DNA of 64,000 nt, taken from the NCBI GenBank assembly GCA_937921825.1, contig CAKZVK010000025.1:1-64000 (forward strand), in the 5' to 3' direction. The position numbers were made by a program, and so were the translations under genes. This document shows positions 5,853-44,863 of the stretch, piece after piece. Position 1 is the stretch's first letter. Each line of letters begins with the position of its first letter. The stretch comes from an uncultured Saprospiraceae bacterium (GTDB taxonomy: Bacteria > Bacteroidota > Bacteroidia > Chitinophagales > Saprospiraceae). A model generated the notes under the pieces. It ran no database searches. It was not told the origin of the DNA and saw nothing but the letters and a program-made list of their open reading frames with translations.

Positions 5853-6287
5853 TTGACAACTCCTGAATCACAAATTACCTTTGAAGTTCACGAACTAGAT
5901 TTCGCATTAGAAGATTCTTCTGATCTCAATGATTGGCTGCTAGCTATAGCCAGAGAAGAAGAGAGAGCTATCAGTCAGTTAGAGTATATCTTTTGTTCTG
6001 ACGAGTACTTACTGGAACTCAATAAAAAATACCTTTCCCACGATTACTATACAGATATATTGACTTTTCCCTTGCAAGAAAGTCCTCTAGAAGCAACTAT
6101 CTATATTAGTGTCGAAAGAGTGAAAGAAAATGCCCAACTTTATAAGACTAATTTTATTGATGAAATGCATAGGGTTATCGCCCATGGATTATTGCATCTC
6201 ATAGGATATAATGACAAGACACAAGATGATGAACAAAACATGCGACTTAAAGAAAATAGCTGTCTGGAAGAACGGACTTTTATCTAG
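5853..6287 (+). CDS. ybeY: Endoribonuclease YbeY (16S rRNA maturation factor)
   Basis: YbeY is a metal-dependent RNase needed for 16S rRNA 3'-end maturation and ribosome quality control. The 144 residues end with the family signature H-G-L-L-H-L-I-G-Y-N-D. The first two His ligands are present, but the third, normally His in DH, is replaced by Asp-Lys, as I recall for other Bacteroidota. The start is TTG at 5853: an in-frame TGA lies at 5847-5849 and the next in-frame Met is deep inside the catalytic region. The 3' end overlaps the next gene's signal-peptide codons by about 59 bp in another frame. Confidence 0.88.
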   Translation: MTTPESQITFEVHELDFALEDSSDLNDWLLAIAREEERAISQLEYIFCSDEYLLELNKKYLSHDYYTDILTFPLQESPLEATIYISVERVKENAQLYKTNFIDEMHRVIAHGLLHLIGYNDKTQDDEQNMRLKENSCLEERTFI

Positions 6288-7947
6288 CTTATTTTTAATA
6301 GTCTTATCCAGCACTTTATTTGCTCAGGACCTCGTTCCAGCTTCTGTTTTCAAATCACAGGGTGGAATAGAGATTACTATAGATGATCATGATGTTGTAC
6401 AAGAAGTTTTACAACATGAGGGCATCACTGTAGATCATGGCTGTACGCATCATAAAGCAAAGTTGTATGTCACAAAGGAAGGCTACGAGTATCTGATAGA
6501 TAATAACTATGCATTTAATTATGTAGAAAGACCTCCAGTAGTTGTGGAGATGAGAGGGCCACAAGAAATATTTACCTATAAAGGAGACTGCATGCCTCCC
6601 ATGGATTATTATCCAACCTATGAAGGTTATGTGGCGATGATGAATGCCTTTGCTGAGCAGTACCCTGATTTATGTGAAGTTGTAAACATTGGTACTTTAG
6701 AAAGTGGAAGACAATTACTTGCAGCTCATATAGGCGATGACATCAATGAATCTGATAACGAGCCCAAAGTATTATACACCTCTACTATGCATGGTGATGA
6801 GACGGCTGGTTTTCCATTGATGCTCCAGTTGATAGATTATCTACTCTGTAATTATGATAATGATGATCAGATCAGACAACTATTAGATGAAGTAGATATA
6901 TACATTAATCCTTTGGCCAATCCTGATGGAACTTATACAGACGATAATAGTACTGTGGATGGAGCCACAAGAAGAAATGCAAACTTTATTGATCTGAATA
7001 GAAATTATCCAGATCCTGAAGATGGGACTAACCCTGACAACAGAGCGACTCAGTTAGAGACAAAGTACTTTATTGATTTCGCAGAAGAAATAGGTTTTGA
7101 TCTATCTTGTAATATTCATGGTGGAGCAGAAGTGGTCAACTATCCGTGGGATACTTGGGCAAAGACAAGTGCAGATGAATCATGGTGGGTAGAGACTTGT
7201 AGAGAATTTGCTGATTCTTGTCAGATCAATAGTGTAGGCAATTATATGACGGACTATTATGACGGTATCACGAATGGCTACGACTGGTATGAGGTCAATG
7301 GAGGTCGACAAGATAATATGATCTACTTCTATAGAGGAAGAGAGATGACCTTAGAGATTAGCGGGAGAAAACTCTTGAATTCAGACCGTCTGCCAGAACA
7401 CTGGGAAGCGAATAGAGGCGCTTTTATTTCATATATCAAGTCCGCCACCTATGGACTAAAGGGTACGATCAAAGATTGTGAAACGGGAGAGCCCATCGTT
7501 GCAGAAGTTTTTCTAGAAGGCCATGATAGAGATAATTCATCTGTCTTTTCGGATGCAAGACTAGGTAATTATTTTAGATTCTTAGATGATGGAGTTTATT
7601 CAGTAAGGTATACCGCTGAAGGCTATGATACTGTATATAGGTCAGTAACAATATTTGATGATGCCGTACATATAGAAGACATAGAACTTTGCGCTTTTTC
7701 TTCTTCTGTATCCGATAGCGCCTTAGAGCAACTGATCTTGAATCTAAATGGGGATAGGCTCTATATCTCTGGAGCGGCTCAGATTCCTAATTTGAATGTC
7801 AGCATTTATTCAGCAGAGGGCAGAGTCCTGCGCTCTAATAAAGAAGGTACTCCGATGATAGACCTTGGAGAGTTGGCATCCGCAGTCTACTATGTAAAAT
7901 TAGAAGCAAACAATAAATCCATCACACGTCCAATTGTAAAACAATAA
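6229..7947 (+). CDS. Secreted M14 zinc carboxypeptidase with T9SS tail
   Basis: Metallocarboxypeptidase that removes C-terminal residues from peptides. Numbered from the ATG at 6229 (572 residues): signal peptide to about residue 33 (TLFAQ), zinc ligands H188 and E191 in MHGDE, substrate-binding NRNYPDP near 258-264, third ligand H298 in NIHGG, and catalytic E377 in TLEIS. A carboxypeptidase regulatory-like beta domain follows (about 405-480) and then a type IX sorting tail ending in a YYVKLE strand and RPIVKQ. Earlier in-frame ATGs at 6211 and 6226 also exist; 6229 gives the most compact signal peptide. It overlaps ybeY and is 3 bp from the next gene. Confidence 0.85.
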   Translation: MNKTCDLKKIAVWKNGLLSSLFLIVLSSTLFAQDLVPASVFKSQGGIEITIDDHDVVQEVLQHEGITVDHGCTHHKAKLYVTKEGYEYLIDNNYAFNYVERPPVVVEMRGPQEIFTYKGDCMPPMDYYPTYEGYVAMMNAFAEQYPDLCEVVNIGTLESGRQLLAAHIGDDINESDNEPKVLYTSTMHGDETAGFPLMLQLIDYLLCNYDNDDQIRQLLDEVDIYINPLANPDGTYTDDNSTVDGATRRNANFIDLNRNYPDPEDGTNPDNRATQLETKYFIDFAEEIGFDLSCNIHGGAEVVNYPWDTWAKTSADESWWVETCREFADSCQINSVGNYMTDYYDGITNGYDWYEVNGGRQDNMIYFYRGREMTLEISGRKLLNSDRLPEHWEANRGAFISYIKSATYGLKGTIKDCETGEPIVAEVFLEGHDRDNSSVFSDARLGNYFRFLDDGVYSVRYTAEGYDTVYRSVTIFDDAVHIEDIELCAFSSSVSDSALEQLILNLNGDRLYISGAAQIPNLNVSIYSAEGRVLRSNKEGTPMIDLGELASAVYYVKLEANNKSITRPIVKQ

Positions 7948-43331: not shown

Positions 43332-43663
43332 CTATCCAGCACATCTTACACATTTAGTACTCTCGGGCATAAACATTAATCTCTTAGGATTGATCTGTTT
43401 ATGACAATTAGAACATTTCCCAAAACCTTCGTTGTCCAATTGTGTCAGCGCAAATTTGAGCTTATTTCTTTTAGAAATTTTGTTCCTAGAGAGGCCTCCA
43501 TGACACTTTTGTTATTGATTGCATCCATCCTACTGACACGACCGAGGGAATTTTCTGGCTTGACCGGTTCTACCATTTTTTCGGTTTCCTTTATGTCATG
43601 CTCATACTTAAGAATCATTTCTTCGATCTTTTTCTTAAGGTCGTTTTTGTCTGCAGTAGTCAC
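43332..43663 (-). pseudogene. DksA/TraR-type zinc-finger protein, frameshifted
   Basis: Two overlapping minus-strand frames together make one DksA/TraR protein. Frame A starts GTG at 43663 and reads to ...RMDAINNKSVMEASL, then out of frame to a stop at 43445. Frame B, from near 43487, reads RNKISKRNKLKFALTQLD and then GFGKCSNC-X17-CVRC to TAG at 43332: the exact C-X2-C-X17-C-X2-C finger of the family. The two fit if one base is missing at about 43487 (CTCTAGGAAC); the 332-bp span is then 333 bp or 110 residues, the usual size. No classical slippery heptamer is present, so a mutation or sequencing error is more likely than programmed frameshifting. DksA-like proteins bind RNA polymerase and modulate initiation. 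Confidence 0.75.
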
Positions 43664-43704
43664 CGTTTATATTTTTATAAAAGCCATAATTTGATTGTTT
43701 TATT

Positions 43705-43806: not shown

Positions 43807-44112
43807 ATGTATCATGGAGAGGAGTCTGGCCATCTCATAATTTTTGTCAATGGGGAAATAATTCAGATTTCCTTTAAGCAATTGGAGACTAAGAATTACA
43901 CCTTTATGATTGAGAATCAGCTCATTGAGTTAGGTATATCAGAGGAAAATGGACAGTTTTCGTATGAGGTGATACCACAACTACCTAAAAGTGTAGAAGA
44001 TGTTGAAAAGACCTTTGATAAGCATTTTTGGATTCCTTTGATATTCTTGCTTGTAATCCTAAATTTGGCCTTCTATTTCGTAAAGCATAAATTTTTCCCA
44101 GGTCTTGGATAA
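43807..44112 (+). CDS. Small protein with one C-terminal membrane helix, unknown
   Basis: A 101-residue ORF from the ATG at 43807 with two beta-like stretches in its first half and one strong membrane helix near the end (about 74-93, IPLIFLLVILNLAFYFVK). The open frame continues upstream to 43690 without an ATG, and its codons (SLTGSPYLIE just before the ATG) read like part of the same fold, so a longer protein with an unusual start is possible. It overlaps scpB by 8 bp, suggesting translational coupling. No family is recognised. Confidence 0.55.
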   Translation: MYHGEESGHLIIFVNGEIIQISFKQLETKNYTFMIENQLIELGISEENGQFSYEVIPQLPKSVEDVEKTFDKHFWIPLIFLLVILNLAFYFVKHKFFPGLG

Positions 44113-44863
44113 TCTTCAACTATATATAGAAAGTCTCATTTTTGCATCTGATAAAGCTATCACTGCAAAAGAGATTAAGAATACAATCAATACTTACCTT
44201 GATAAGACAATCAAGGAGAAAGAAATTACTGCGGCCCTAGAAGGGCTCAATACTAAGTACGAAGATGACAAGTATCCATTTGAGGTAAAGGAGATTGCTG
44301 GAGGATTTCAGTTTATGACTAAGGGTACTTACTATCCCGTCGTCAGTCAATATCTAAAGCTAGAGTCTAAGAAAAAGTTATCTCGATCAGCACTTGAGAC
44401 ACTGGCAATAATCTCCTATAAGCAACCGATTACAAAATCTCAAATAGAAGGCATAAGAGGTGTCAACTGTGATTATGCCGTCCAGAAATTATTAGAAAAA
44501 GAACTGATAGAAATATCTGGAAGAGCAGAAGGACCTGGAAGACCACTACTATATGCTACCTCAGAGAAATTTATGAATCACTTTGGCTTAAAAGATCTGA
44601 ATGATCTACCTAAGATCAAAGAGTTCGAGATGCCAGAGAATGAGATAGGTCCCAAAGATGGGGAAGTTGCTTCTCCAGGACCTGCATCAGAAGGTGCCGA
44701 AGCACAACCCGACGAAGCGGATAAGCCAGCGGATGAGACAACTGAGCTAGAGAATAAAGAAGAAGTTAATTCTGAGGAGATAGCAGTAGAGGCGGAAAAT
44801 TCTACTGAACTATCAGAACCCTCTGATGTTGAAGGTTCAGAATCTAAGAGTGAGGAGGAATAA
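44105..44863 (+). CDS. scpB: SMC-ScpAB complex subunit ScpB
   Basis: ScpB is the winged-helix kite subunit of the bacterial condensin. The 252 residues contain two winged-helix domains (about 1-75 and 90-170) with the family signature SALETLAIISYKQPITKSQIEGIRGVN split across about 98-124 and GRAEGPGRPLLYAT. The C-terminal 80 residues are an acidic, disordered tail longer than in many homologs. The start is TTG at 44105. No scpA or smc gene is next to it here. Confidence 0.9.
   Translation: MDNLQLYIESLIFASDKAITAKEIKNTINTYLDKTIKEKEITAALEGLNTKYEDDKYPFEVKEIAGGFQFMTKGTYYPVVSQYLKLESKKKLSRSALETLAIISYKQPITKSQIEGIRGVNCDYAVQKLLEKELIEISGRAEGPGRPLLYATSEKFMNHFGLKDLNDLPKIKEFEMPENEIGPKDGEVASPGPASEGAEAQPDEADKPADETTELENKEEVNSEEIAVEAENSTELSEPSDVEGSESKSEEE

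What the first reader, a model, noticed from the sequence alone, without database searches (positions are those of the whole stretch)
43332..43663. DksA/TraR-type gene split by a single-base frameshift
Read on the minus strand, an N-terminal frame and a C-terminal frame join at about 43487 to give an intact 110-residue DksA/TraR protein with a perfect C-X2-C-X17-C-X2-C finger. The span is 332 bp, one short of a whole number of codons. Both halves look conserved, so the break is recent, a sequencing error, or a functional -1 event. The loss of a transcription modulator would be of interest in this strain.
Basis: seen in the sequence. Interest (0 to 1): 0.6.

Follow-up and report, generated by a model that had tools for sequence, protein, structure and literature searches.

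The report
One-base break in a DksA-like gene
A small, strongly conserved regulator gene of an environmental bacterium has lost one base in this assembly, so it reads as two pieces; close relatives carry it whole, and the break is most likely a sequencing/assembly slip or a very recent mutation rather than anything designed.

Summary
Named relatives suggest Saprospiraceae. Of 13 other genus genomes, 10 match the C-terminal half, all 10 in one open frame, and the neighbours (hemA, scpB) are mostly conserved. Of 91 distinct homologs examined, 90 are intact; the other is broken differently, by a TGA at its third finger Cys. Apart from the missing base the coding content looks functional: no departures at 24 near-invariant columns, and low nonsynonymous divergence in both halves. 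It is the only frame break detected in 45.9 kb of the window covered by relatives' proteins. Programmed -1 frameshifting is poorly supported: no homolog examined has this split and the homologous junction is not slippery; one canonical heptamer (43457) lies downstream, but its use would replace 12 conserved residues, and comparable codon pairs occur in 8 of 90 intact homologs. As assembled, the product is 72 residues without a zinc finger. A consensus error and a very recent real mutation cannot be separated without reads. Ordinary; low interest.

The parts
43445..43663 (-). N-terminal frame of the DksA/TraR-like gene: GTG start, 72 codons, stop TGA; ends before the zinc finger
   Evidence: homologous to the N-terminal part of intact orthologs through ...NKSVMEASL
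43332..43511 (-). C-terminal frame, open from 43511 to TAG 43334-43332; homologous to relatives from 43487 on; carries C-x2-C-x17-C-x2-C
   Evidence: PF01258 33.7 bits, cut-off 24.9
43486..43490 (-). Place of the one-base change (Leu-Arg codon junction); not a homopolymer
   Evidence: comparison with 12 intact orthologs
43451..43457 (-). The only canonical X_XXY_YYZ heptamer in the zone where both frames are open, 10 codons past the junction; judged a by-product of Lys-Phe codons
42056..43327 (+). hemA, glutamyl-tRNA reductase (convergent neighbour)
   Evidence: Pfam GlutR_N and Shikimate_DH; beside the gene in 9 of 10 genus relatives
43807..44112 (+). Small protein of 101 aa with no Pfam match, conserved neighbour
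   Evidence: no Pfam match up to E 1; found in the stretch in 7 of 10 genus relatives
44105..44863 (+). scpB, segregation and condensation protein B
   Evidence: Pfam SMC_ScpB 177.8 bits; in the stretch near the gene in 7 of 10 genus relatives

Best explanation
This is an ordinary ortholog of a short (about 110 aa) DksA/TraR-like C4 zinc-finger protein of the Bacteroidota in which one base is missing at the Leu-Arg codon junction near 43488. Shown: homology, synteny, intact relatives and the place of the shift. Inferred: translated as assembled, the gene gives a 72-residue protein whose last residues are out of frame and which lacks the zinc finger, so it should not act as a DksA-like RNA polymerase factor. 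The event is either an error in the consensus of this draft assembly (about 50%) or a very recent real deletion (about 43%). It is not programmed.
For: In the genus, 10 of 13 other genomes have a match to the C part, all 10 in open frames of 111-126 aa; among genomes at least 90% complete it is 7 of 7, own included. Of 91 distinct homologs examined, 90 have both halves in one frame. Gene order around it is mostly conserved. Apart from the shift (two junction codons masked), the window gene has 0 departures at 24 columns that are at least 95% invariant over 91 rows, and 2 departures at 69 columns in a 13-sequence comparison where the 12 intact genes have 1-8 at 71-74 columns. pN is 0.130 against pS 0.84 versus the nearest relative, and both halves behave alike. 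No other frame break was detected in 45,919 window bases covered by relatives' proteins. The homologous junction itself is not slippery.
Against: Reads were not available, so error and mutation cannot be told apart. Two small oddities would fit relaxed constraint: a GTG start where the 12 compared orthologs all have Met, and Val where the other 13 near sequences have Thr (Val does occur there in more distant homologs such as L022). pS is near saturation, so a short recent period without selection would be invisible. A heptamer and a partly slippery site do lie in the overlap (see the recoding rival).
Confidence: 0.93

Rival explanations
1. Consensus or assembly error: the organism's gene is intact and one base was dropped in the draft assembly.
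For: The gene is present in 7 of 7 genus genomes at least 90% complete, own included, and its other bases look fully constrained. The assembly is a draft of 172 contigs.
Against: No other frame break detected in 45.9 kb of relative-covered window, so the contig does not look generally indel-prone. The site is not a homopolymer.
Confidence: 0.5
2. A real, very recent one-base deletion that inactivates the gene in this strain or part of the population.
For: An isolated event in an otherwise clean stretch; a non-homopolymer site; GTG start and one residue unusual among near relatives. A more distant homolog (L067) carries its own, different break, a TGA at the third finger Cys.
Against: Conservation elsewhere suggests that the gene is useful. 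The genome's other PF01258 protein keeps only one of the four finger cysteines, so it is unlikely to stand in for it (inference).
Confidence: 0.43
3. Functional recoding: -1 ribosomal frameshifting or RNA polymerase slippage joins the halves.
For: Both frames overlap openly for 66 bases, and a canonical heptamer A_AAT_TTG lies at 43457-43451 just before the N-frame stop. Also, the codon pair AAA TTT at 43480 would re-pair with 0 mismatches in the P site and 1 in the A site, and a slip there would change only a few residues; AAA GAA at 43471 would re-pair with 0 and 2.
Against: The 90 intact homologs do not need it and 0 of 91 homologs shows this split. At the homologous junction the Leu codon would re-pair with 3 mismatches. 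Use of the heptamer would replace the conserved RNKISKRNKLKF segment with 12 other residues. Eight of 90 intact homologs hold a comparable codon pair in the same zone. Downstream RNA is not unusually structured (z -0.61 and +0.55). The A runs in the overlap are no longer than four bases.
Confidence: 0.04

Closest known systems
DksA/TraR C4-type zinc-finger family (Pfam PF01258)
   Same: Finger C-x2-C-x17-C-x2-C and score over the curated cut-off. An intact relative aligns weakly in its C-terminal part with solved DksA proteins (best of these 2kq9, E 0.042).
   Different: Short form of about 110 aa; the frame is broken in this assembly; C part and intact relative score below the cut-offs of NCBIfam's DksA, TraR and YteA models. 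In the search of solved structures no match was below E 0.001 and the top row was an unrelated septin at E 0.024.
Short DksA-like orthologs of Saprospiraceae and other Bacteroidota (among L003-L122)
   Same: Similar length, motif GRxSRMDAINNK; in the genus the same neighbours in most cases.
   Different: They are open (90 of 91); the window copy is not. L067 has a different break.
Frameshifted or mis-assembled genes of draft genomes (ordinary, from general knowledge)
   Same: A single-base change in an otherwise constrained gene.
   Different: Nothing distinctive seen.

Membership tests
DksA/TraR C4 zinc-finger family (PF01258) | C4 zinc-finger profile match over the curated cut-off | tested here: met
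   C-terminal frame 33.7 bits, cut-off 24.9; own-genome search 34.9 bits
DksA/TraR C4 zinc-finger family (PF01258) | One open reading frame joining the N-terminal helical part to the finger | tested here: not met
   Frames differ by one base in the window; met in 90 of 91 distinct homologs
DksA equivalog (NCBIfam TIGR02420, NF033459) | Score over the equivalog cut-off | tested here: not met
   31.4 and 29.1 bits for the C part, 30.5 and 32.1 for an intact relative, cut-offs 115.5 and 105
DksA/TraR C4 zinc-finger family (PF01258) | Binding in the RNA polymerase secondary channel (recalled) | not testable with these tools
   needs biochemistry
Programmed -1 frameshift gene | Split conserved in relatives | tested here: not met
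   0 of 91 distinct homologs examined shows this split
Programmed -1 frameshift gene | Slippery heptamer with downstream structure | tested here: inconclusive
   One heptamer 10 codons past the homologous junction, no unusual structure; comparable codon pair in 8 of 90 intact homologs

The most novel reading that the evidence does not exclude
The strain makes a variant DksA-like protein by -1 frameshifting in the overlap, for example at A_AAT_TTG (43457-43451), replacing 12 conserved residues before the finger and tying the regulator's level to translation.
Probability: 0.02. Interest if true: 0.65.

Novelty: new member of a known kind. Interest (0 to 1): 0.1.

Why it matters
If the deletion is real, this strain has lost the only PF01258 protein with a full C4 finger that its assembly shows (the other match keeps one of four cysteines), a factor widely conserved in its relatives, which could be a natural knock-out. 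If it is an error, the case only warns that gene loss should not be called from one draft assembly.

Tried and rejected
Homologs naturally ending at the N-frame stop: rejected, since 90 of 91 distinct homologs run through. Second copy or strain variant elsewhere in the own genome: none found; the C part matches once, and the second PF01258 hit is a different, finger-poor protein. Generally indel-rich contig: not seen in 45,919 covered bases; the remaining 18 kb of the window were not covered, and the test misses breaks close to gene ends and plain stop codons. Old pseudogene: rejected by conserved columns and low pN. Selenocysteine for the TGA of L067: no tRNA-Sec match over the cut-off in that genome or in the own one (0 of 2). 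A query meant to bring in relatives of the window's 57-60 kb end gave only weak matches (22-36% identity) in other genomes, so that end was not compared. Papers: four searches were answered, three on DksA with Bacteroidetes and TraR, Bacteroides, Flavobacterium (the first found none) and one on indel errors; only listings with the starts of abstracts were seen, none was used. The first pairwise dN/dS run was out of register by one codon and is discarded; one search replaces it. No structure prediction was run.

Full report
Observation. On the minus strand a GTG-started frame runs from 43663 to a TGA at 43447-43445 (72 aa), and a second frame, open from 43511, runs to a TAG at 43334-43332 with the finger C-x2-C-x17-C-x2-C. 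The second frame passes the Pfam PF01258 cut-off (33.7 bits against 24.9); the first has no Pfam match over a cut-off. One relative's single 113-aa ORF matches both frames colinearly, E 3.5e-43. The span is one base short of 110 codons plus stop.

Where the shift lies. Intact orthologs read NKSVMEASL-RNKISKRNKLK.

Which organism. The window is contig C25 of a 4.0 Mb draft of 172 contigs, 96.5% complete. The family Saprospiraceae is thus inferred. No second genome of the same species was seen; the nearest homolog in the named collection is 77% identical in the N part, but that tool states that records of the window's own genome or very near ones may be left out.

Relatives. With the C part as query, 10 of 13 other genus genomes have a match, each in an open frame of 111-126 aa; the three without (G003, G006, G012) are 87%, 86% and 53% complete. 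I read ORFs in 119 loci (L003-L031, L033-L122), some of which hold the same gene twice. Fifteen loci, all from the family search, gave no ORF that met the search patterns and were not inspected further. 102 ORFs (89 distinct) hold both the motif and the finger. L006 is an intact homolog with a variant motif. L067 has the motif but breaks at a TGA in place of the third finger Cys. Six other finger-pattern ORFs look unrelated and were dropped. So 90 of 91 distinct homologs are intact.

Neighbourhood. In 10 genus relatives hemA is beside the gene in 9 (not found in the 20-kb G009 stretch), and scpB is found on its other side in 7; in G002, G004 and G007 the stretch compared shows none. The window gene is thus a syntenic ortholog.

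Constraint. Over 91 rows the window gene has 0 departures at 24 columns at least 95% invariant, with the two junction codons masked. In a set of 14 near sequences it has 2 departures at 48 columns, where the others have 0-4: the first residue (GTG against ATG) and Val for Thr. In a 13-sequence comparison it departs at 2 of 69 columns, the 12 intact genes at 1-8 of 71-74. Against the nearest relative pN is 0.130 and pS 0.84; N part 0.116 and 0.88, C part 0.145 and 0.79. pS is near saturation, so this speaks against an old pseudogene, not against a recent one.

Rate of such breaks. Comparing relatives' ORFs with the window by tblastn covered 45,919 bases; all frame-change signals fall at about 43400-43500, on the minus strand, with antisense matches on the plus strand that mirror them. 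The contig therefore does not look generally indel-rich. Breaks near gene ends or plain stop codons would escape this test.

Recoding. In the 66-base overlap the only canonical heptamer is A_AAT_TTG at 43457-43451, 10 codons past the homologous junction. Its use would replace RNKISKRNKLKF by 12 other residues. A comparable codon pair is present in the same 14-codon zone in 8 of 90 intact homologs. At the junction itself the Leu codon would re-pair with three mismatches. A better site by this count is AAA TTT at 43480 (0 mismatches in the P site, 1 in the A site), which would alter only a few residues; AAA GAA at 43471 has 0 and 2. Downstream folding is unremarkable (z -0.61; z +0.55). No homolog examined shows the split. 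Recoding is improbable, not excluded.

Redundancy. The genome's only other PF01258 match at E 0.001 (C68) is a 122-aa protein beside a gene that I recognise from memory as resembling lspA. Its finger keeps one of four cysteines. A real loss would thus remove the only PF01258 protein with a full finger that this assembly shows.

Verdict. The break is confirmed and correctly placed. It is most likely a consensus error or a very recent deletion in an ordinary, conserved DksA-like gene; reads would decide.

Noticed in passing
L067, about 6001-6335: A homolog from another Saprospiraceae assembly has TGA exactly in place of the third zinc-finger Cys codon, followed by the rest of the gene in frame; no tRNA-Sec over the cut-off in that genome.
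   Followed up: partly
L002:1486-1854 (-), own genome contig C68: The second PF01258 protein keeps only one of the four finger cysteines.
   Followed up: partly
L123 (G009:C84) around 6700-7200: hemA, next to the gene in the other nine genus relatives, was not found beside it or elsewhere in this 20-kb stretch.
   Followed up: no
window 43401-43694 (+): A 97-aa ORF antisense to the gene; plus-strand matches to relatives here look like the shadow of the conserved gene.
   Followed up: partly
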